A DNA stretch of 64,000 nt. Origin: Hygrocybe punicea (lineage: Eukaryota > Basidiomycota > Agaricomycetes > Agaricales > Hygrophoraceae). Of this stretch, positions 1 to 35,905 are shown piece by piece. The notes under the pieces were generated by a model, which saw only the letters and a list, made by a program, of their open reading frames with translations, had not been told where the DNA came from and made no database searches. The stretch spans positions 6,262,001 through 6,326,000 of the forward strand of contig OY744468.1 of NCBI GenBank assembly GCA_963556145.1, in the 5' to 3' direction. Within the stretch, counting starts at the first letter, position 1; every line of letters begins with the position of its first letter. The translations under genes and the position numbers were made by a program.

Positions 1-370
1 CTTTTTGTAGTTGCAAGGTCATGATTCTAATATACATGGTGAAATTCTCAAGAGCATTGTGAATAGTTTAACTGCATTGGCACATAAGTTTATGGATGTG
101 CTACTTTTCAGTAATTGGGATATGATGAAAGAATGGGGAAAGGGCCAGAAGGCACAGGAATGGCTAAGAAAGGGTTGTAAGGGGCAGGAAAGGTTGTGGG
201 AGGGTGTAAGAGGGAGTCAGGGAGGTTAAGAAGAACTTGGTTAGGGTGTGAAAGGTGCAGGAGAGTGTGAGAGGACTTGGGGAGGTTTAGAGGGCTCAGG
301 GGAGGACAGGGAGGACCTGGAGGAGGCCAGAGTGTAGGGAAGAGCAGGAGGTGGGCTCAGGTGAGTTGGG

Positions 371-2156
371 ATGGGTGACTGGAGTGGTGCAGGATGTTTG
401 TCAGCAAATACTATTATGCACACATTACTCTATCCCTCCACTGTTTGCCTTACACATCCACATCACATGATGTGATGATCATGAGGAGAGTATTGTCAAG
501 AGTGAGGAGAACCACTTGAAGAGGGCAACAAGTCACATCACAGTGTGTTCCACATTTGACAATTTGACAGTCTGGATTTCATTGTCCTATGCCACTTTCT
601 CACCAATTTCAACCTCCACTACTTGTACATTATGCTTTCCAACACCTCCTGCACTTCTTCCCTGGAATGTATGCCTTGCTCATACACTTTACAGCTATAC
701 TTTCCCCACCCCTCAAATCAGCTGTCGTTCACAATGGACCTGACCATTCATTATTCATGAGAAGTATTATGAAAGTGCAAGCTGCAAGTTTACCTTTCAC
801 ACCTGTTTTTGCAGCCTCAGTAACTAATGAGCTCCCCACAGATTGTTTGCAACTCCACTACCCTACCCTGCCCTTCCCTTCTCTATGCCTTGTGTCCTCA
901 CACACACCCTTCCCATGCACTCCCATACCCCTTGCACCCTCCCTCACAAGGACTATCATGGGTATGCTGACACCTGAATGACCTGCAGGTCAGTGAGGGG
1001 TTGGGTGCAATGGGTGTACCCTTGCATAGGTATGGGGTGGTGTGTGGGTCACCTGCAGGTTGCCAACACATTGGTGTCTCCCCACTCTTTCTAGCATTTA
1101 TCATGATGTAGAGGCTCTGGACTGTCTGGAATCATATCCTCTTCATGTCCCACATTGTTCCCATCCACTTCCACTCCAATATCATTGATTCCACTCCTTT
1201 CCACCGATTCCACTCTGGATTCCACCTCTGAAATTGTTCCTACCCATGATGTGATGTTCCTAATGACTTAGAATCAGTATATATATACTTGTACATCACA
1301 TATCTTCATTTCCCATCTCTCAGTACATAGGTCTCTTCTCCTATCTACCTCCTCACTTCACCGCTATCAGTTACTTCCTTTGCCTATAGTATACAGCACA
1401 AGATTCTCTCCAGTAGTATAGAAGTTGTGCTTTTACACTACAAAATATAGCTTATTACCACACTTCAGATCTACCATTTAGTACCCTCATTGTATCTCCC
1501 ATATTCCTCTTCATCTTCCCCCTACATTTCCCCTCTGTTCCAGAACCCCCAGATCTTGGTTGGATTAATTACGACAACCTATACAAGACCTAAGACTCCT
1601 CAGATCACTTTCTAGCTAGTCACCCTTACTGTAGATTCCTATCCAGGTCTACACTGACACTTGCCATCACAACGACTTGGTAATTACATAACGGGTTCCA
1701 CAGGTGCAGGTCAGGGTCACCAACTGGCCACCCACTGCCACACCACACCCTTATGATGATGGTAACAGGTCACAACCACCAAGAAGAAAGCAGTGCAAAC
1801 CAAACCAAACAGGCATTGAGGGTGATGACTGCAACTGCCATGACCACAACCAAACCACAACCACAACCACAATGACTGCAATGGTGACCACACCAACAAC
1901 AGTTACAGTACAATGGCAAAAAGGGTTGGAGGTGTGGTGTGCCTGCACTCCAACCCAGGTACATTTTATTTTTCTTCAACATAGATCTCTCACCTCCCCC
2001 CCAGATACCGCTCAAGATTACCTCATGAATACAGAACACATCAAATGTGCTTTCAAGGTGATGGCAATGAGGGTAACAAAGAGGCACCAGAACTGCAGCA
2101 CCAGTGCTTCCCTGCGCCATCCAACCCCCTGAACATCTCACAACCCCTCTGTCCTT
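371..2156. other. Interior of the left transposon, no gene supported
   Basis: Short open frames on both strands lack family features and are rich in low-complexity Thr/His/Pro. Visible structure is a TATATATATA run at 1278-1287, CCTGCAGGT palindromes near 981 and 1051, and a CAC/CAA-rich tract at 1845-1905. The stretch 1240-1700 has an AT-rich start followed by pyrimidine-rich sequence like a fungal promoter or LTR leader, but no matching second copy was found. Confidence 0.4.
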
Positions 2157-2434
2157 AGTGTATTGCATGGGTAACCCCCAGGTATTTTTAGCTGTACCCA
2201 TACCTGCACCCGTTGGTACAATACCTGCAGGTTCACCTGTCATTTTAAGCCCTGGATATGCTTAAAATACAAGAATAAAGTATTTTAAGCATATCTAGCT
2301 CAATACTTGACCATTGTGGATGATCCAGGGCTTCAAAAAGAGCTGGTGGGTCCAAGAATCTGTGCCTGTGCCTGTACCTGAGGCTATACGTGTGGCAAAA
2401 CCTGCAGGTTTACCCATACCCATGCAATACACTA
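2157..2434. mobile_element. Small inverted-repeat element (MITE-like) nested in the transposon
   Basis: AGTGTATTGCATGGGTA at the left is mirrored by TACCCATGCAATACACT at the right, giving a ~278-bp unit with short terminal inverted repeats. No clear target duplication was found. A related terminus (GTGTATTGCACAGGTATGGG in reverse) occurs near 43850-43885, so the family is present more than once. Confidence 0.55.
2255..2295. repeat. Perfect 16-bp hairpin
   Basis: GATATGCTTAAAATAC (2255-2270) and its exact reverse complement (2280-2295) are separated by a 9-base loop. It lies in the middle of the nested 2157-2434 element. It may be part of the transposition substrate; a role as terminator or RNA hairpin is unsupported. 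Confidence 0.6.
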
Positions 2435-2646
2435 CCTGGCCTCTCACACCCTTGCATGGCCTCCCCCTGAGCTCACCTGAGCCTGCCCCTGCCCTTCCCT
2501 GCACTTTGGCCCTCCCTGGCCCCTCTAAACCTCCCCGACTCCCTCTTGCACCCTCCATAACCTTTCCTGCCCCTTCCAACCCTTTCTTAGCCATTCCTGT
2601 GCCTTCTGGCCCTTTCCTCATTCTTTTATCATATCCTAATTACTTA

Positions 2647-2867
2647 CACTGCAAACATCAAGGGATTTGTAAATTTGACATATGCTAAAATAATCTATAA
2701 ACATATTAATAATTTGTAAGATACTCAACAAATTCATAAAATATTGAACCTTTTATTTTTATAAATGGCAATCATTGCTTTATTTGGAATGAATTTTTGG
2801 AGTTTGCCAACTTTCTTAACAATTATTGGATTATGTCAAATTTACAAATCCCTTCATATTTGCAGTG
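2647..2867. mobile_element. 221-bp MITE with TTA target duplication
   Basis: Terminal inverted repeats begin CACTGCAAA and run on into AAGGGATTTGTAAATTTGACAT and its mirror image. TTA flanks both sides (2644-2646 and 2868-2870). The left arm of the host transposon preserves an uninterrupted version of the site (around 109-117), which shows that this is an insertion into the right arm. A 3-bp TTA duplication fits PIF/Harbinger-type movement; that assignment is inference. Confidence 0.75.
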
Positions 2868-3334
2868 TTAAAAGTAGCACATATAAACTTATGCGCCAAT
2901 GTAGTTAAACTACTCACAATGCTTTTGAGAATTTCACCATGTATATTAGAATCATGACCTTGCAACTACAAAAAGAGACTTGTGAATGTAGTAATAGACA
3001 TTATGTACATTGATAAAGAAAAAGTACACGGGGTCCATACACTATCACCTTCGGCTATCACACATTGTGTCACGGTTTTTGAGCAGGTCAGTCTCGGTTT
3101 CCATAGAACTGCAAAACGGACACTACCGACAGTCCTGTCCAGTTGATGATATTACCAGGATTGTGTTGGGAGTAGGTGAGTAAAGTTTTGGTCTGGCCCT
3201 GGCTATGTCACTTATTACTACTGACTTTACTTGGTTTTGGCTGATGACATTGACAATGAAGCTTAATGAAGACCAGGCGGATCCAAATTGGAGCCGAGTA
3301 AGCTCAAGAACCAGTCGATTCTTCGGCCGCAGGC

Positions 3335-3383: not shown

Positions 3384-4348
3384 ATGTCCCGGGACTCTAT
3401 CGACAGTCAACCTCTCCTGCCTACGACGGCGTCTACATTGGGAAAACTTGAATATCAAGAACCGAAACCGACTAGTTCATGGCGACGAACTGCTCTAGTA
3501 GCCACTTCCGTCGCCCTGAATGTCGTTTTCATCCTGGGCTATACAATGTCGTTGCATAGAGAGCCCAGATGTGCCCCGCAGCTGTACTGTTAGTCCCACG
3601 CTCGCATCCCCCGTACTTTATGTTCTGAAGTCTAAAGGATTACGAGCAGCGCCGGCCCAAGATGTTGTGGAGTATGTGCCGAAATCATTCGGTAGTATAT
3701 GGGATAAATCCATATATGCTGCCCCGCCTTCACCTGAAGTCGATGAAGCATGGGAAAATTTGTATAGTTGTGAGTAGTTCATTGCCATATGTCCCTCGCA
3801 TTTCTCGCTAACGGTCACCCAAGTTGGAGTCATGCAGTTACCGAAGAGTCAAGCTGCCCTTCTTCCCAACAGGACGGCACCTATCCCAGGCGACGAACAA
3901 AACTATATTCTCACATTCGATGTATTCCACCAGTTGCACTGTCTTGTATGTTGCTCCGAAATTGTGCTTTCTAACCTCATTGACATCTCATCACACACAG
4001 AACATGATAAGGCAGGCCCTCTCCCCCGAGTATTACGATTCTGCGTATTACATACAGAAGGGTACACCTTCCCCGCTGCACTTACATGTGGAGGGGCATG
4101 ACGATTTCGACCACGCGGCTCACTGTATCGACAGTCTACGAGAAACGCTCACGTGCACTGCGGACTTGACGCCAATCCTCTGGACCTGGGACGATAGACG
4201 CCAGCGATCAACGCCGACTTTAGAAAGCGTGAACCACGTCTGCCGGAACTTTGAAAAGATTACGGATTGGGTCAGAGCGCACACACTTCGCACGTATTTC
4301 AATGCTACGGTGCATCTCGAAGACGATTTGAAGTTTCAGAAAGCTTGA
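3384..4348 (+). CDS. UstYa-like (DUF3328) membrane oxidase, 258 aa, 4 exons
   Basis: Exons 3384-3570, 3650-3769, 3824-3945 and 4001-4348 join in frame to 258 residues. Introns are 79, 54 and 55 bp; the second has a CTAAC branch site. The protein has a short cytosolic tail, one membrane segment (about residues 37-57), then the family signature: SPAQDVVEY, PPSPEVDEAW, IPGDE, HQLHC and HAAHC. The two HxxHC motifs are the proposed active-site/metal ligands of UstYa enzymes, which act in the secretory pathway and cyclise ribosomal peptides (ustiloxin, phomopsin, asperipin type). No break is seen. Unspliced, the frame is lost at 3594, so exon 1 depends on the predicted 79-bp intron, whose 3' site is the least certain of the three. 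The gene lies 0.9 kb upstream of, and in the same direction as, a repeat-type secreted precursor, which suggests a shared pathway. Family call is firm; substrate is inference. Confidence 0.88.
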
Positions 4349-5231
4349 ATAGTGCCTTACATGTAAGAAAACTTCTGCGTAATATGCAATCTCTTCTCCC
4401 GTTTGAGGAAATCCGCTAAATATGTAATCAAGGCAGAGAAATCGGTGGGCGGGCTTTCGTGGCCGATACTTCCATGGCGCATGAGAATTAAAATTCAACC
4501 CACTCATTCATGGGGATTCTCCGATCATTTCAATCAATCATCGATATTAATAATCATCAATTGTCCCAGCGCAAATACTCAAATTTCTCGTTCTCAACTC
4601 TCCCGCATGCCGTTCAAAGTTGCGACTTATGGAAAGTCATCCACTAAAGGTGATCGACTGGGGAGCATGAGGCAATGGCTACTACGTAATCAGATACAGT
4701 GAAGGAATCCAATCTACATTCTGAAAACAGATCGCCAGTCGTAGGGGAAGATACCACCGGATGAACGCGAGACTACAGGTGGAAGACTTGCTCCTCCGCT
4801 CGCGTCGGCGTGTTTAGCGTGGTCTTTGCAGCTTGAACTGGAACCAAGATTCCTGGCTGATATGTGGCTTGGAGCAGGGGATCCAGATATCATGACGGAT
4901 CAACATAAATCACACCCCGTGTAACTCTAAAGTATTCTTCGAGAACAATAGAACATCAGCATTGGGTGAGTATGAATTTGCATTCTTACCAGATATACTC
5001 ATGCTTTCGTAGCTGCAGTTGGCCGGCAACCGCTTTCCCTGTCGAATCCCCGAACTGAAGACGACGGAACTTCCGCGGTATTATCGCGTATCCAGAGAGA
5101 GGCGACGGCGAAGTCGTTTTTGCAACTATGGAAATGCCGTCAGATGTTTGGTCGATACGTATAAGTATTCTATAAAACGGCGAACGCTTTGGAGTTTCCA
5201 ACCTCTGTCCTGACATTTTCCCTCACTCATC
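4349..5231 (+). other. Spacer between UstYa-like gene and precursor gene
   Basis: There is no open frame with protein-like features. It should hold the 3' end of the oxidase gene and the promoter of the precursor. TATAAAAC lies at 5171-5178, about 55 bp before the precursor ATG, followed by a pyrimidine-rich leader (5200-5231). Confidence 0.5.
5171..5178 (+). promoter_or_regulatory. TATA box of the precursor gene
   Basis: TATAAAAC is 54 bp upstream of the ATG at 5232 and is followed by a CT-rich leader ending TCACTCATC before the ATG. Spacing and composition fit a strong, regulated fungal promoter. Confidence 0.5.
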
Positions 5232-6456
5232 ATGCAGTTCAAGTTGGCATCGGCATTTATTGCCCTTAGTATTGTTGTATCCGCTGTCACGGCTGCTCCT
5301 GTGACGGATGCCCCAACCGCTGAGTCTAAGGTATATTACAAACTCTTTGATTTCTCCCTTAATACTGATAGATGCCCCAGGGAACAGACCTTGCCTTTGC
5401 TGATTATAAAGCACGCGAGGACCAGCCTGAGGTATGTTCAAATTCTGGCAACACATTTTCATTATTCCTTGATACTGATGTTCACGAAGCCCCAAGGGGT
5501 AGATATTGCTTATAAGCGAGAGGAAAGGCCGGAAGTATGTCCTGGCAACACATTGGATTCTCTTTTAATACTGATAGTTGCGATGCCCCACTGGCAGGGA
5601 ACCGATATTGTCTTTGACAGTTACAAAGTGCGCGAGGACCAACCTGAAGTATGTTCAAATTCTGGCAATGCGTTTCCATACTGATGCTCGCGAAGCCCCA
5701 AGGGGTAGATATTGCTTATAAGAAGAGAGAGGAAAAGCCGGAGGTGTGTTCTGGGAACACATTGAATTCTCTTTTAATACTGATAGTCGCGATGCCCCAG
5801 GGAACAGACATTGTCTTTGACAGGTATAAGGCGCGCGAGGACCACCCCGTGGTATGTTCAAAGTCTGGCCACTCCCTTGATACTGATGCTCGCGAAGCCC
5901 CAAGGGGTAGATATTGCTTATAAGAAGAGAGAGGAAAAGCCGGAGGTGTGTTCTGGGAACACATTGAATTCTCTTTTAATACTGATAGTCGCGATGCCCC
6001 AGGGAACAGACATTGTCTTTGACAGGTATAAGGCGCGCGAGGACCACCCCGTGGTATGTTCAAAGTCTGGCCACTCCCTTGATACTGATGCTCGCGAAGC
6101 CCCAAGGGGTAGATATGGCAACTTTCGCTTATAAGCGAGAGGAAAAGCCGGAAGTGCGTTCTGGCAACACATGTGGATCCCTTTTTTTAAATACTGATAG
6201 TTGCGATGCCCCAGGGAACGGATATTGTCTTCGACCGTTATAAAGCGCGCGAGGACCAGCCTGAGGTATGTTCAAAGTCTGGCCACTCCCTTTTTTTAAA
6301 ATACTGATAGTTGCGATGCCCCAGGGAACGGATATTGTCTTTGACCGATATAAAGCGCGCGAGGACCAGCCTGAGGTATGTTCAAATTCTGGCAACGCGT
6401 TTTCCTCCTTGACACTGATGTCCGCGAAGCCCCAAGGAGTGGATATTGCTTATTAG
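5232..6456 (+). CDS. Secreted repeat-peptide precursor (candidate RiPP / kexin-processed), 208 aa, 12 exons
   Basis: Exon 1 (5232-5330) encodes a signal peptide and short leader (33 aa; cleavage likely near VTAAPV). Eleven further exons follow: 5381-5431, 5490-5534, 5598-5648, 5696-5743, 5801-5851, 5898-5945, 6003-6053, 6100-6153, 6215-6265, 6325-6375, 6430-6456. All eleven introns (46-63 bp) are phase 0, start GTATGT, GTGTGT, GTGCGT or GTATAT, and carry an ACTGAT branch motif. Each exon encodes one repeat. Type A is G-T-D-I-V-F-D-R-Y-K-A-R-E-D-Q-P-E (17 aa); type B is P-Q-G-V-D-I-A-Y-K-(K)R-E-E-K-P-E (15-18 aa). They alternate A/B except for two adjacent A copies near the end. Type B has a KR or KKR kexin site after Tyr; the last exon stops at GVDIAY. 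With the UstYa-like neighbour this matches the UstA/dikaritin plan. I infer Tyr-ended core peptides; the mature product is unknown. Confidence 0.8.
5696..6099 (+). repeat. Perfect tandem duplication of a 202-bp exon-intron cassette
   Basis: Bases 5696-5897 and 5898-6099 appear identical. Each unit holds one type B exon, an intron of 57 bp, one type A exon and an intron of 46 bp. The duplication adds two repeat peptides without changing frame, because every junction is phase 0. Identity of introns as well as exons indicates a very recent unequal exchange. Confidence 0.85.
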
Positions 6457-14372: not shown

Positions 14373-15690
14373 TCAAATATGTGATTGTACCGTTACCAAA
14401 CCCACCAGAATCGCGGTTACCAAAGTCACTCGTACATTACTGACCACAAAGAACATACCCTCTCCTCGCCAACCCCGGGCACTCGAAGTGCAATTGAAAG
14501 GACTGGAGACATTGGCCGAGAAGGTGGATCCACAAGGGACAAATACAGAATCGTAGCCAAGGACAGTGAGCGGTTGATTTGATATCAAGGGGAAGCCTTG
14601 ACTGAAATTGATCTCACCAATCAGACTGTTGAGTACACACCGCAAAAGGTTGCTTACCCGTTCCCAAGATCTATGGTCCCCTGCGTCCGCTTGTATTGCA
14701 CATGCGCAATCAACGCACCCTGGCAAGCAAACATCCATGATTAGATTATTGTGGAAGGATATGGAACACACGATTTGTCCGGGTGCAATCATGATCCCGA
14801 CAGCTTGCGATTGCTCGGTGGTTCTCGTCCGAGACCAAGAGAAACCAACTTTTGGGCCTACATCCAGCTCCCCGAATGTGATCCCAATGGAGTCGGTAAA
14901 ACTCCATGCATCTGATAGACTGATCGTTCCAGTGATTGTATCTGTGTTGGGCGAAGTCGCATGCGGATCACAATTGTAGACGGGGGACCCGACAATCAGA
15001 TCAAAAGTCATGATCGGCAAGTTGTCCTGTGAAGTAAACGACATCGCATATACATGATGCATATCAGACAGAAGTGTAACGTACCGCAGGAGCGAACGTG
15101 CATTTGCCAGTGCCGCATGGTTGGCAATGGAGCAACTGCGAAAGCACGGGGGCTGTTGTTGTTGCCGTTGTCGGCTGTGCGGAAGTGGTGGAAGTCCGCG
15201 AAAGCGTGGAGGCTGTTGTCGTCGCCTGTGCGGAAGTGATGGAAGGATTGACTTGGTAATTGAAGGTAAGTTCCCCTTTCGAAACGTCGTTATCTGAGGG
15301 GTAATTAAAAGGGACGCTGCCACAGACAGTGCAATTGTGGTCGGTGATGTAATGGGCAATACGTTGGATATCACTGCCCGTGGCTCCGCTCGGCATGTGC
15401 TGCAAAAGAGCGCAGACGTAATCAAGACTGCCTAAAATACGTTGGCCTTGGCACGCAATCATTTCGCCGTTGTTGTACAATTGATTGGGGTCAATGCCCA
15501 TAATGGTGGTGACGAGGGATTGTGCGGTCGTGGGGTGAAAGTGAAGGCAGAAATGGTCACCTTGGCAATTGATCCCGAAGGCAGCGACGGTGTTCATCGG
15601 GAACACCAGCGAATGAAGTACAGCAAGGACAGTCATGAAGTACAATGTAGACCCGTACCACCCGTGGGATATTGGCGCGGGATCTGACAT
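14373..15690 (-). CDS. Secreted KP4 killer-toxin-domain protein with C-terminal extension, 419 aa, 2 exons
   Basis: Exon 1 is 15690-15085 and exon 2 is 15026-14373, with a 58-bp GT-AG intron in phase 0. After an N-terminal hydrophobic signal segment (about residues 13-37) comes a region with KP4 hallmarks: INCQG, IMGIDPNQLYNNGE, IACQG, HNCTVCGSVPFNYP and NDVSKGELTFNY, with the spaced cysteines of the fold. A Thr/Ser/Ala linker (about 150-185) leads to a second, Cys-containing beta-rich domain of ~200 residues that I do not recognise (DNLPIMTFDLIVGSP to GYDSVFVPCGSTF) and a hydrophobic C-terminus. KP4 proteins are small secreted toxins that block calcium channels of competing fungi, and genomic homologues are widespread. 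This protein is much longer than the ~120-residue stand-alone toxin. No break seen; activity unproven. Confidence 0.75.
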
Positions 15691-16250
15691 GACTGTGCTT
15701 GTGTTAGCGCGGCGATGTCAACGTGGCTGGGTGAGAGAATGGGCGTTGGTGACGGTAGTGCGTACGTGAAGGACGAATGGCTTGGTGGCGTCGGGATGCC
15801 GACGCAACTGGGTAAAAGGGCAGGGAATGTTTAGCCCAATGTGGGGTTGAGGTAATATTCCGCCTGAACTCGCGATCATTGTGAGTGCGGATGGTAGGAA
15901 CATACCTGAGGGTGTGGATTACGGAGGGAGCAGCGGTGGGCGACAGGGATACAAGCCTCCTACTTGGAAGGAAGGGGATCAGTGCCAACGAGCCCATTCC
16001 TTTAGGACCTTCTGACTCGGATCATTGCACCAGGCTGGGTTAGTGCATTTGCTACAGCCTACAGCATCCCTCATGCACACCGGGAGTTTCAATATTTAAC
16101 CCCAGTGAGGATAGGACAATAGGCTAAAGGGCGTTAGCGGATACAGAGTAGCGGTAAAGGATGGGGACGTTGGGGGACAGCGAATATGTTTAGCGGAGAT
16201 CATCAGGAAAGGCTGGTTTTTCCAGGCGGAGTTGATAAGTGATATTCATG
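15691..16250. other. Upstream region of the KP4-domain gene
   Basis: No separate gene is supported. A minus-strand frame at 15997-15704 is Ser/Arg/Pro-rich and probably lies in the 5' leader or promoter of the KP4-domain gene. Confidence 0.4.
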
Positions 16251-31013: not shown

Positions 31014-32186
31014 ATGTCTTTCCAAGGCTTCTCCCAACGAAGAACCCCCACACGTTATCGACTTACACGACCGGCAAACACCTCATCCCAACGCCCAACG
31101 ATAACCCCGGTCTCTCCGTTAGAAGAAACTCACACTCCGAGACACGAACCGTTTCCGCGCCCAGTCTTCGAAGAGAACAATCCTCTCGGACCGGGCAATC
31201 CTAATCGCGATGATACCAACCTTGCTGAGGCCATCGCTCTTCTAGCCACTACTCTCCGAAACAAAGGAGACGACAAGCAACGCACCAAAGTCCGAGAACC
31301 GGACACGTTTGACGCCTCCGATCCGACAAAACTCCGCCCTTTCCTGGTTCAGTGTCAACTGAACTTCAATGATTGACCAACCGCTTTCCAAACGGACGGC
31401 GCCAAAGTCAACTTCGCCCTCTCCTACCTCAAGGGGATCGCACTTGCGTGGTTCGAGCCTTACCTTTTGGAGAACCCGGATATCGATACCTATCCGCCAG
31501 ACTTCATGTCCGATTACGGAGATTTCTGCACGGAGTTGCAGAATAATTTCGGACCTCTGGACCCTAAAGGTAGCGCCGAGAGCGAGTTGGAAAACCTTGT
31601 AATGAAGGATAACCAACGAATTGCGAAGTATATCGTTAACTTCAATCGTCTCGCTACGCAGACTGGCTGGGACATTGGTGCCTTACGGCATTCTTTTTAC
31701 CGAGGACTTCCGGATCGCCTCAAAGATCAACTTGCCCAATCCGAGAAACCAAAGAACCTCTACGAACTGAAGGATAAGGCTCAACTCCTTGACGCCCGGT
31801 ATTGGGAACGGAAATCGGAGATTTCCCGCGCTTCAGGATCCTCTTCTGCTAAAGCCTCTATTTCCGAGGCCAAGTCTTCGACCGAAAAAGCTTCCGAGAA
31901 GAAGTCCCCTGCCAAAACTACCAACTCCGGTAGTATCTCCTCCACCACTCCGAAAACCCCTCCTGTCTACGCCGATAAGCTAGGCAAGGATGGTAAACTC
32001 AAGCCCGCGGAACGTCAACGCCGCATCGACAATAAACTCTGCATTATATGCGGAGGAGCCGGACACATGGCCAAGGATTGCACCAAGGCCAAATATTCGT
32101 CCACTCGCGTTGCCGCCCGCGCCGCCTCCACTTCCTCCACACCTCCGGTCTCTAGTTCCGATTCTCTAGAGGAGCCGGAAAAATAG
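31014..32186 (+). pseudogene. gag of the chromovirus with one in-frame TGA
   Basis: ATG at 31014 (SFQGFSQRR...) gives 390 codons. The frame is open but for TGA at 31374-31376, between LNFND and PTAFQTDGAK. Downstream are the capsid region (KGIALAWFEPYLLENP, FNRLATQTGW) and one zinc knuckle C-x2-C-x4-H-x4-C (CIICGGAGHMAKDC, near 32038-32080). Relatives commonly have Arg at this place, so CGA to TGA (a CpG change) is the simple explanation; readthrough is possible but unsupported. It ends GAAAAATAG at 32186, where the pol frame overlaps. Confidence 0.85.
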
Positions 32187-35100
32187 AGAGCAGTCTGCAT
32201 ACTCCGGCACAGGATGTAGGCTGCGTTGAACCTGACTGTGCGCTACCGGAAGTAAAACTCAACGCGTCCGCTCTTTCTAACGATTCCTTGACGATTTCTC
32301 TTTATCATTCTACTACGCTTATCGTTACCCTTGTGGATTGTGGATCGACGCATTGTTTCATTGACCCGGAATTTTGTTCCCTTCACAATCTTCCTATTTT
32401 TCCTACTGCTCCGAAACGCCTCCGCTTGTTTGATGGTTCCTCCGGTGGAATCATTGACAAATGTGTATCTATCTCTGTCCGTTTTTCTACTGGTGAAATT
32501 CTAATCTTAGAATTTTTGGTCACTCCGTTGGATCCGTCTGTTTCCGCAGTTCTTGGATATAGCTGGCTCGCCAAATACAATCCGTTGATTGACTGGGTCG
32601 AGCATAGCGTTAAATTCCGTTCTTCTGATTCCGCGCCTCCGTTGTCGACTCCGGTGCCTAGCGAGGCACCACTTCCGGACCTTCCAGTACGACCTCCGTC
32701 CCCTCCGTCCTCTCCGTCTACTCCGCCTGAACCTTCTTCACCATCCGCTTCGAAGCCTGACATCTCCTTTGTCAGCGCTCAAGCCTTTTTGCGTGGTTGC
32801 AAAGTACCCGGCACTCAGGTCTTCCATATGGAAGTCCGATTACCTGACGCCACCGGTCGCTCTGCAAGCTACGGCCCTCCGGAGTCCTCCGAACCCTCCG
32901 TGGACCTTCACAATATCCCTGAAGAGTATCACGAATTCGCTGACGTCTTTAGCAAAACGAAGGCTTGGAACCTCCCTGAACACCGTCCTTACGACCTCAA
33001 AATTAATTTGGAGGATGGTGCAAAACCTCCTTTTGGCCCGATTTACTCTATTTCACCCTTAGAGCTCGAGACCCTTCGGGAATTCCTTGACAAGAATCTC
33101 CAGGCGGGTTTCATCCGCTCCTCCCGTTCTCCCTGCGGAGCTCCCATTCTTTTCTCTCGGAAGAAAAATGGAAGTCTTCGACTTTGCGTAGATTTCCGAG
33201 GACTCAATCGTATCACGAGGAAGGACCGCTATCCTATCCCTCTTACGGCGGACCTTCTCGACGCTCCCCGGACTGCGCGCATTTACACTAAAATTGACCT
33301 TAAACACGCCTACCATTTAGTCCGGATTGCCGAAGGTGATGAGTGGAAAACAGCTTTCCGCACTCGCTATGGCTCGTTTGAATGGTTGGTAATTCCGGAA
33401 GGTCTTACTAACGCCCCGGCGGCCTTCCAACACTTCGTCAACGATATTTTTTCCGACCTCCTTGACGTCTCTGTCATTGTTTACCTTGACGACATCCTCA
33501 TCTATTCCGATGACCCCGCTGATCATGTAGACCATGTCCGCGAGGTCCTCCGACGACTCCGGAAACACGGCCTCTATGCCAACGCCGAGAAGTGCTCTTT
33601 TGGCGTTGACACGGTGGAATACTTGGGTTACATTCTTTCCCCCCAAGGCCTTTCTATGGATCCTGCCAAGGTCCAAACTATCCAGGATTGGCCGGAACCC
33701 CGGAGGATCAAAGATGTTCAATCCTTCCTTGGATTCGCCAATTTTTACCGGCGTTTCATTCCGGACTATTCCTCCATCACTATTCCACTTACCTGGCTCA
33801 CTCGTAAAGGGTTACAATGGAATTTCGATGATAAGTGTCGTTCCGCCTTCAATGACTTGAAATCCGCTTTCATTTCCGCCCCAATCCTTTCCCATTGGTC
33901 ACCCGAGTTTGACACTCTGGTGGAGACTGATGCTTCCAATTACGCCGTTGCTTCCATTCTCTCCGTACGCCATCCTGACGGTGAAATTCATCCGGTTGCT
34001 TTCCGGTCTCGTACCCTTTTGGACTCGGAGTTGAACTACGATACCCATGACAAGGAACTCCTTGCCATCTTCAACGCTTTCACTGCCTGGCGGCATTATT
34101 TGGAAGGTACTGCTACTCCGGTCAACGTTATCACCGATCACAAAAATTTGGAGTACTTCTCCACCGTCCGCTTGCTTACCCGCCGTCAAGCCCGCTGGTC
34201 GGAGTTCCTTTCCCGCTTCAACTTTGTTATCCGCTTTCGCCCAGGCAAGCTTGGCACTAAGCCCGATACCCTTACTCGACGCTGGGACGTCTACGCTAAA
34301 GGGGGAGATAGCGACTACGCCAAAGCCAATCCTCACAATTTCCGCCCTGTTTTTGGGCCGGATCAATTGGCTTCGTCCCTCCGAGCGACTTCCCTCGAAG
34401 ATGTAGTCCTTGGCGCCGGATTCACCATAGACGTCGATTCCCTTCACTCCGATATCATCTCCGGACTACAGGTTGATCCTATTGCCTCCGGACATGTTTC
34501 CCGTACCACCTCCGGCCCAGATCCTCGATGGTCTATCAATGATTTAGGTTTTCTACGCCTCGATAATCGTATCTATGTCCCCGATGTCAATGACCTACGA
34601 CTCCGGATTTTGCGTTCCAAACATGATCATCCTACTGCAGGACACTTCGGGCAAAATAAGACTCTCGAAATCATCCGGCGGGAATACACCTGGCCCGGAC
34701 TCCGGACTTTTGTCCGTGATTACTGCAAGTCTTGCACAACCTGCGCGAGATCCAAAACCCCTCGGCATCGTCCTTACGGATTGCTTAAGCAGCTCCCTAT
34801 TCCGGAGAAACCATGGAATTCAATTTCCATGGATTTCATCGAACAACTTCCGGACTCCGAAGGATTTACGGCCATCCTAGTTGTGGTTGACCGTCTTTCC
34901 AAGCAAGGGATCTTTATTCCAACTTACGATACGATTACTTCCCCCCAACTCGCACATCTTTTCCTTATTCACGTTTTTTCTAAGCACGGAGTTCCTAGTC
35001 ACGTCACCTCCGATAGAGGCACGGAATTTGTTTCCCATTTTTTCCGGTCTCTCGGAAAGGCCCTCGACATGAAACTCCACTTTACCTCCGGTTATCATCC

Positions 35101-35905
35101 TGAAGGCGATGGCCAAACGGAACGCGTCAATCAAACCCTTGAGCAATATCTCCGCGTTTATTGCAATTATCAGCAAGATAATTGGTCGTCTCTCCTTCCT
35201 CTTGCGGAATTTGCTTACAACAATGCTCCAAACGCCACTACCGGAGTTTCTCCTTTCTTTGCCAATAAAGGTTACCACCCTAACCTTTCCGTTCACCCGG
35301 AGCGCGACCTCTCCTCCGCCCACGCACGAAAATTCGCTGTGGACCTCGATGAGTTACATCAACAACTTCGACAAACCATCTCTGAGGCACAACAACGTTA
35401 TCGACACTACGCGGACTTGAAGCGCGCTCCGCCTCCGAACTTCAAGGTTTCGGATTCCGTCTACGTCAAAGCTGAGCATTTCCGGACTACTAGACCCTCC
35501 AAGAAACTTTCTGAGAAGAACTTGGGGCCTTTTGAAGTTATTGCTAAGGCCGGTACTCACTCATATACCCTCCGTCTTCCGGAGGCTCTCCGCTCTGTTC
35601 ACCCGGTCTATCATGTCTCTCAGCTCGAACCGGCGACTCCGAATACCATTCCTAACCGTGTCCAACCTCTGCCTCCTCCGATCGTTGTCGACGGAGAACC
35701 GGAGTTTGAGATCTCCGAAATACTCGATTCCAAGATCGACAACCGCCGTCGTGCTTGCAAGCTACTGTACCTTGTACGTTGGGAGGGCTACGAAGGCACT
35801 GACGAAGAAACTTCTTGGATCTTGGCCTCTGAACTTGGACATGCTACTGAGCTCGTTTCGGACTTTCACTCCGCTTATCCTTCGAAACCGGGCCCGTCCT
35901 ATTAA
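32187..35905 (+). CDS. pol polyprotein of the chromovirus: protease, RT, RNase H, integrase, chromodomain
   Basis: The frame is open through the gag stop (-1 relative to gag) and runs to 35905 without a stop; counting from 32288 it has 1205 codons. In order, by residue from 32288: aspartic protease (LVDCGSTHCFID, about 17-28), reverse transcriptase with VYLDDILIY (YLDD 399-402), RNase H (ETDASNYAV, about 545; TDHKNLEYF), integrase zinc region (HDHPTAGHFG...CTTCARSK, about 780-820), core with SMDFIEQLP, TSDRGTEF and GDGQTERVNQ (D,D,E), and a C-terminal chromodomain (EISEILDSK...LVRWEGYEGTDEETSW, about 1140-1195). No ATG starts this frame near the gag end, so frameshifting or a fused translation is needed. 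Looks functional. Confidence 0.93.

What the first reader, a model, noticed from the sequence alone, without database searches (positions are those of the whole stretch)
3384..6456. Candidate ribosomal-peptide (dikaritin-like) locus in a basidiomycete: UstYa-type oxidase plus repeat precursor
Seen: a complete DUF3328 gene with both HxxHC motifs, and 0.9 kb downstream in the same direction a signal-peptide protein made of eleven short repeats with Tyr before KR/KKR. Known: ustiloxin, phomopsin and asperipin pathways pair a repeat precursor cut by kexin with UstYa enzymes. Inference: this is an uncharacterised member with new core sequences (GVDIAY and GTDIVFDRY types). Known examples are mainly from ascomycetes, as far as I recall.
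Basis: partly seen in the sequence, partly recalled or inferred. Interest (0 to 1): 0.93.

Follow-up and report, generated by a model that had tools for sequence, protein, structure and literature searches.

The report
Mushroom ribosomal-peptide gene pair (dikaritin-like)
A bolete-type mushroom carries, side by side, a gene for a repetitive secreted peptide precursor and a gene for an enzyme of the kind that ties such peptides into rings; this looks like a new, compact member of a known fungal peptide pathway that has hardly been studied in mushrooms.

Summary
Window 3384-4348 (+) is an intact four-exon UstYa/DUF3328 gene (264 aa, E 9e-55, both HxxHC motifs). Starting 883 bp downstream, 5232-6456 (+), a twelve-exon model encodes a 208-aa repeat protein: a leader exon, then eleven exons of one Tyr-containing repeat each (six GTD(I/L)..F..Y, five GVD(I/M)..AY). 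Correction: Tyr precedes KR/KKR in 4 of 11 repeats; the six GTD types have Tyr-Lys-Ala/Val-Arg and the last ends Tyr-stop. Kex2 cutting at KR alone would give five fragments, each with both core types. The UstYa falls in a supported Boletales clade. The 92-Mb genome showed two UstYa genes (a lower bound) and a decayed precursor relative on another contig. No protein homologue of the precursor was found, by word-based searches. Best reading: a minimal dikaritin-type RiPP locus. Such KEP-DUF3328 pairs are already catalogued in Basidiomycota (103 of 1680 KEPs, Umemura 2020), so this is a new member of a known kind, with a one-exon-per-core design not met in the papers searched. Splicing, cleavage and cyclisation are inferred, not shown.

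The parts
3384..4348 (+). UstYa/DUF3328 oxidase gene (264 aa), exons 3384-3588, 3650-3769, 3824-3945, 4001-4348; hydrophobic stretch (likely N-terminal membrane anchor) at residues ~37-57, HQLHC at 144 and HAAHC at 187
   Evidence: spliced model; PF11807 E 9.3e-55; motifs and hydropathy; 49-63% identity to the seven named Boletales proteins P0002-P0008; invariant residues
5170..5176 (+). TATA-like element (CTATAAA at -62) upstream of the precursor ATG; the decayed relative on contig C41 has TATAAAA at the aligned place
   Evidence: pattern match and pairwise alignment
5232..5330 (+). Precursor exon 1: leader with signal-peptide-like hydrophobic core, then APVTDAPTAESK
   Evidence: hydropathy peak 2.67 over 12 residues; no signal-peptide predictor was available
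5381..6375 (+). Ten internal precursor exons, each one repeat, all phase 0-0: GTD type 5381-5431, 5598-5648, 5801-5851, 6003-6053, 6215-6265, 6325-6375; GVD type 5490-5534, 5696-5743, 5898-5945, 6100-6153
6430..6456 (+). Last precursor exon PQGVDIAY-stop: the last core ends the protein, needing no C-terminal cut
5678..6116 (+). Recent duplication inside the array: a 237-bp exact run repeated at 202-bp spacing, holding one GVD and one GTD exon with introns

Best explanation
A two-gene dikaritin-type RiPP locus of a Boletales mushroom. Shown from sequence: an intact UstYa oxidase gene and, next to it on the same strand, a model of a Kex2-processed-repeat-protein (KEP) gene with one Tyr-containing core per exon. 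Inferred: the precursor enters the ER. In the Golgi, Kex2 cuts after the four KR sites and Kex1 trims the basic residues. This gives five peptides that end in the Tyr of a GVDIAY (or GVDMATFAY) core, with one or two GTDIVFDRY-type cores upstream in each. Cutting after the single Arg of Tyr-Lys-Ala/Val-Arg, or exopeptidase trimming, may separate the two core types. The membrane-anchored UstYa then oxidatively links the Tyr of a core to a nearby aliphatic residue, most simply the Ile of G-V-D-I-A-Y, giving a small cyclic secreted peptide. Sub-claims: real, functional KEP gene about 0.9; partner of this UstYa about 0.8; oxidative side-chain cyclisation of at least one core about 0.7.
For: UstYa intact, with the 20 residues invariant among 20 aligned sequences kept. 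Precursor: 12 exons, GT-AG introns, phase 0, no internal stop, hydrophobic leader, Tyr in 11 of 11 repeats, third-position bias. Adjacency: same strand, 883 bp apart, in a 92.2-Mb genome where PF11807 rang at two genes (a lower bound). Proprotein-convertase P-domain matches are present twice on contig C2 (not read further). DUF3328 genes peak at the gene next to KEP genes, and 65.6% of the repeat sequences of DUF3328-linked KEPs contain Tyr against 38.2% of the others (PMC7329392 passages). Agaricomycete KEPs expressed in Pichia gave products apparently cut after single Arg (PMC9769878 passage), which fits the Tyr-Lys-Ala/Val-Arg sites. In victorin the link is described as C-terminal aromatic side chain to an internal Leu (review PMC9233826 passage), the same layout as ...I-A-Y ending a Kex2/Kex1 fragment. 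A decayed relative with the same leader and GTD-type exon-like pieces exists on contig C41, so the precursor family is older than this array.
Against: No RNA or peptide data. Only 4 of 11 repeats are followed by a dibasic site. No homologue of the precursor among proteins, so co-conservation with UstYa in other boletes could not be tested. No tyrosinase, transporter or second UstYa found nearby (MFS scoring incomplete). The C41 relative has no UstYa match on its contig, so a precursor of this family can lie without one. [quoted passage not shown]
Confidence: 0.72

Rival explanations
1. A KEP giving linear, at most trimmed secreted peptides (signalling or repellent-like), with the UstYa acting on something else.
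For: Most basidiomycete KEPs have no DUF3328 gene nearby (103 of 1680 do), and the KEP peptides detected by MS in Coprinopsis, Lentinula and Pleurotus are called minimally modified (PMC9769878 passages). The C41 relative has no UstYa match on its contig.
Against: Two UstYa genes found in 92.2 Mb and one lies 883 bp from this gene on the same strand; Tyr is kept in 11 of 11 repeats.
Confidence: 0.18
2. A variant inside the best explanation (its odds overlap with it): both genes act, but the product is one long (about 28-30 residue) peptide per Kex2 fragment, the GTD Tyr and the GVD Tyr both being modified, rather than separate short rings.
For: Strict KR cutting gives five fragments, each with both core types.
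Against: The characterised dikaritins and epichloecyclins are described as small cyclic peptides, and cutting after single Arg was suggested for agaricomycete KEPs.
Confidence: 0.2
3. Gene-model artefact or recent pseudogene: tandem DNA repeats that merely look like exons.
For: The array is young and in part exactly duplicated (237-bp run), in a transposon-rich stretch; no protein homologue found; the relative on C41 has decayed.
Against: All 12 exons in frame with 11 GT-AG introns; leader kept at 78% protein identity on C41; third-position bias.
Confidence: 0.06

Closest known systems
Epichloecyclins (GigA + UstYa-like cyclase, Epichloe; ascomycete)
   Same: Secreted repeat precursor with kexin sites, clustered with a UstYa-like gene (PMC8982410 passage); imperfect repeats giving several related cyclic peptides with a Tyr-Ile link (PMC9233826 passage). 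A repeat unit of 27 aa there is recalled; here about 33 aa per GVD+GTD pair.
   Different: Ascomycete; Ile N-terminal and Tyr internal there, Tyr at the end of the core here; homology not tested; here two alternating core types and one exon per core. The GigA intron structure was not seen in any call.
Victorin pathway (Cochliobolus victoriae)
   Same: Link described between the C-terminal aromatic side chain and an internal aliphatic residue (review passage); the GVDIAY core would end Kex2/Kex1 fragments in the same way. Further core similarity is recalled only.
   Different: Victorin is chlorinated and extensively modified; no such genes were found or sought here beyond. Primary paper not held.
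Ustiloxins, phomopsins, asperipin-2a (dikaritins)
   Same: KEP precursor plus DUF3328 protein; the asperipin-2a cluster has just one DUF3328 gene.
   Different: Tyr is described as N-terminal in ustiloxin and phomopsin cores, here at the end of the core. Tyrosinase, required for ustiloxins and phomopsins, not found near this locus.
Basidiomycete KEPs with DUF3328 nearby (Umemura 2020), e.g. the Tyr-containing Sistotremastrum type S-5
   Same: Same gene pairing in Agaricomycetes; 8 of 12 S-5 KEPs have DUF3328 nearby. Sistotremastrum UstYa proteins group with the Boletales ones in a 14-row clade (99/96).
   Different: 'Boletales' and four bolete genera looked for give no hit in the main text (supplements not read); S-5 sequences not compared.

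Membership tests
UstYa/DUF3328 oxidase | PF11807 domain over its full length | tested here: met
   positions 2-220 of 220, E 9.3e-55, 186 bits against a cut-off of 25
UstYa/DUF3328 oxidase | Two HxxHC motifs (named as the marker of RiPP-related DUF3328 proteins in PMC12048977, passage) | tested here: met
   HQLHC at 144, HAAHC at 187; both His and the Cys of each motif invariant in 20 aligned sequences; among 56 relatives the first His of the second motif is only nearly invariant
KEX2-processed repeat protein (KEP) | N-terminal signal peptide | tested here: inconclusive
   strong hydrophobic core followed by small residues; hydropathy only, no signal-peptide predictor available
KEX2-processed repeat protein (KEP) | Near-identical repeats separated by dibasic sites | tested here: met
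   11 repeats, 4 KR sites, five fragments each with one or two GTD and one GVD core. Only 4 of 11 single repeats are directly followed by a dibasic site.
Dikaritin RiPP | KEP gene near a DUF3328 gene | tested here: met
   same strand, 883 bp apart, no other gene seen between them
Dikaritin RiPP | Side-chain cyclised product made by the DUF3328 enzyme | not testable with these tools
   needs LC-MS and gene removal
Ustiloxin/phomopsin subtype | Tyrosinase in the cluster | tested here: not met
   PF00264 matches (8 of 8 candidates scored) lie on C1, C33, C34 near 42 kb and C40, none in C34:6.2-6.33 Mb; six-frame search, exon by exon
Epichloecyclin | Homology to GigA | not tested
   GigA sequence not held; none fetched

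The most novel reading that the evidence does not exclude
A basidiomycete dikaritin made by just two clustered genes, whose precursor is built as one exon per core with every internal exon symmetric (phase 0-0). Exon duplication, loss or skipping could then change the set and order of cores without breaking the frame, and two alternating core types would give two different rings, one released by dibasic cutting and the other by monobasic cutting.
Probability: 0.2. Interest if true: 0.65.

Novelty: new member of a known kind. Interest (0 to 1): 0.42.

Why it matters
In the passages seen here the characterised UstYa-dependent ribosomal peptides are all from ascomycetes (reviews PMC9233826 and PMC12048977), while Pleurotus alone has 16 UstYa-family genes, only 'probably' tied to dikaritins (PMC8893723 passage). 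A two-gene locus with readable cores gives exact masses to look for in a mushroom, and would test whether UstYa enzymes cyclise ribosomal peptides in Basidiomycota. The exon-per-core gene may also explain why automatic annotation would miss such precursors (an inference, in line with no protein hit).

Tried and rejected
Precursor homologues: full precursor (407 candidates, none at E <= 1e-3) and a 123-aa part (7 candidates, none at E <= 10); both searches see only proteins that share short exact words and a similar length. DNA copies in the genome: only itself; that search did not ring at the C41 relative either, so it is not sensitive. The precursor protein search (E <= 10) gave 18 matches: 11 on the locus itself, one on C41, and six at E 2.1 on C7 and C35 (34% identity over 47 residues in long open frames), not followed. 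The UstYa protein search (E <= 1) found only the gene itself and missed the C40 gene that the family search found, so distant UstYa genes may be missed.

Pfam matches of the precursor above cut-off (Cytochrome_P460, Colicin_Pyocin) were rejected as repeat-summing artefacts because a single 33-aa unit has none; Umemura 2020 lists similar oddities for KEP types. A solved UstYa structure: no sequence match at E <= 1.

A KEP beside the second UstYa gene on C40: a script filter (at least 4 KR/RR with alike flanks in one open frame) printed none in 30 kb there, and four Arg-rich low-complexity frames around our locus. The filter does not see exon-split genes; it missed our own precursor too, so it excludes only unsplit KEPs. 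The 54-nt x4 repeat there shows no dibasic KR/RR array by that filter.

Recent horizontal origin from ascomycetes: rejected, since the UstYa sits in a Boletales clade (9 rows, 100/99). That tree has the query and 61 of the 115 hits; 54 hits, unnamed or surplus, were left out by hand. Its deep forks are partly open, and neither phylum is one clade (4 and 3 changes).

Tailoring genes nearby by family search: none, MFS and P450 scored in part. ORFs of 180 aa or more near the pair were scanned in part (16 window or flank frames); short exons of other genes would escape. Literature on exon-per-core precursors: searches returned no paper, one search gave 66 papers of which the 20 listed look unrelated by title; this library lacks most subscription papers.

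Full report
What is there. The window is C34:6262001-6326000 of a 92.2-Mb genome in 42 contigs. The best named relatives of the UstYa protein are P0002-P0008 from Gyrodon, Hydnomerulius and Phlebopus (49-63% identity), which I know as Boletales, so the host is most likely a bolete-type mushroom; the species is not known to me. At 3384-4348 (+) lies a four-exon gene for a 264-aa protein that matches PF11807 (UstYa) over its full length, E 9.3e-55. It has a hydrophobic, anchor-like stretch near residues 37-57, and HQLHC and HAAHC motifs. In an alignment of 20 sequences 20 positions are invariant, both motifs' His and Cys among them. In 56 relatives 14 are invariant and the first His of the second motif is nearly so.

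The precursor. From 5232 to 6456 (+), 883 bp after the UstYa stop, a model of twelve exons with eleven GT-AG introns of 46-63 nt, all phase 0, encodes 208 aa. Exon 1 is a hydrophobic leader. The next eleven exons are one repeat each: six of GTDIVFDRY type (variants GTDLAFADY and GTDIVFDSY) and five of PQGVDIAY type (one variant GVDMATFAY). The last exon stops right after the Tyr. Tyr is present in 11 of 11. A KR or KKR follows the Tyr in 4 of 11; the six GTD repeats continue Lys-Ala/Val-Arg. Cutting at KR alone gives five fragments with one or two GTD cores and one C-terminal GVD core each. The array is young: a 237-bp run repeats exactly at 202-bp spacing. Among the six GTD exons variable columns fall 2, 5 and 11 on codon positions 1, 2 and 3 (p 0.014, rough because the copies are related).

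Elsewhere in the genome. PF11807 rings at two UstYa genes, this one and one on C40; the search is exon by exon, and a search with our UstYa protein missed the C40 gene, so this is a lower bound. A protein search with the precursor finds, besides itself and six weak matches at E 2.1, a leader with 78% identity on C41 (E 0.011). Reading that place shows the same leader, a TATA element at the aligned place, then three GTD-type exon-like pieces; one has lost its donor site and one has slipped frame: a decayed, diverged relative. No UstYa match lies on C41. A DNA search finds only the locus itself. Proprotein-convertase P-domain matches occur twice on C2. No protein relative of the precursor was found, within the limits of word-based searches.

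Neighbourhood. Left of the pair lie a stretch of 2.98 kb with inverted arms, a gene with an NPHP3_N (NACHT-like) domain and WD40 repeats, a PrpF-like gene and a CxC4 frame of the kind found with KDZ transposases; right of it lie an APH-like kinase frame and a KP4-like frame, then Ty3-type pieces. Tyrosinase, MFS and P450 searches put none within C34:6.21-6.33 Mb (MFS 9 of 93 and P450 92 of 152 candidates scored). So the cluster, as far as seen, is two genes.

Origin. In a tree of the query and 61 of its 115 hits the query joins an unnamed metagenome protein (99/91), then the Boletales proteins (9 rows, 100/99), with Athelia, Piloderma and Sistotremastrum proteins in the next set (14 rows, 99/96; their own grouping 96/76). 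This argues for an old resident of Agaricomycetes, not a recent arrival from ascomycetes. The deep forks are partly open.

How it most likely works (inferred). Secretion, Kex2 cutting after KR and Kex1 trimming would leave peptides ending in the core Tyr. The lumen-facing UstYa could then link Tyr to a nearby aliphatic residue. For victorin the reviewed layout is C-terminal aromatic side chain to internal Leu (PMC9233826 passage), which is the layout of GVDIAY. The GTD cores need cutting after a single Arg or trimming; products apparently cut after single Arg were reported for agaricomycete KEPs expressed in Pichia (PMC9769878 passage). Expression, splicing, cutting and cyclisation are all unshown.

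What is known already. KEPs and their link to DUF3328 genes were surveyed in PMC7329392 (passages read): 1647 of 5372 ascomycete and 103 of 1680 basidiomycete KEPs have a DUF3328 gene within 15 genes. Pleurotus has 16 UstYa-family genes (PMC8893723 passage). One DUF3328 gene of Pisolithus microcarpus, a bolete relative (recalled), appears in a table of symbiosis-regulated genes (PMC12409109 passage). The pairing itself is therefore known; these core sequences were not searched for in print, and a Boletales case and an exon-per-core gene were not met in the listings and passages seen, in a library without most subscription papers.

Verdict. A sound finding with one overstated detail: a new member of a known kind, worth a targeted LC-MS look.

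Noticed in passing
C41:4171642-4172181 (L020 1501-2040): Decayed, diverged relative of the precursor: leader 78% identical, three GTD-type exon-like pieces, one donor site lost and one frame slip; no UstYa match on that contig.
   Followed up: yes
C40:5695666-5704720 (L009 8666 to L010 7720): The genome's second UstYa gene (PF11807) has a tyrosinase domain about 7.6 kb upstream (five places with tyrosinase matches in the genome) and a 54-nt x4 tandem repeat about 0.6 kb upstream; possibly another UstYa-tyrosinase cluster.
   Followed up: partly
window 15067-15717 (-): Open frame with a KP4-like domain (PF09044, E 3e-30).
   Followed up: no
window 1-2975: Stretch with long inverted arms (93 nt, 96%; inner 90 nt, 94%) just upstream of the UstYa gene, transposon-like; its frames were not scanned for domains.
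   Followed up: partly
C34:6257614-6261659 (L008 5614-9659): NPHP3_N (NACHT-like) domain followed by WD40 repeats (15 stretches) in two overlapping open frames, NLR-like gene left of the window.
   Followed up: no
window 32156-35902 (+): Long open frame of a Ty3-type retrotransposon (reverse transcriptase, RNase H, integrase, chromo domain).
   Followed up: no
P0002, P0005, P0007: Gyrodon lividus has at least three close UstYa relatives, two of them on contigs of the same length (235,940 bases), so copy number may vary among boletes.
   Followed up: no
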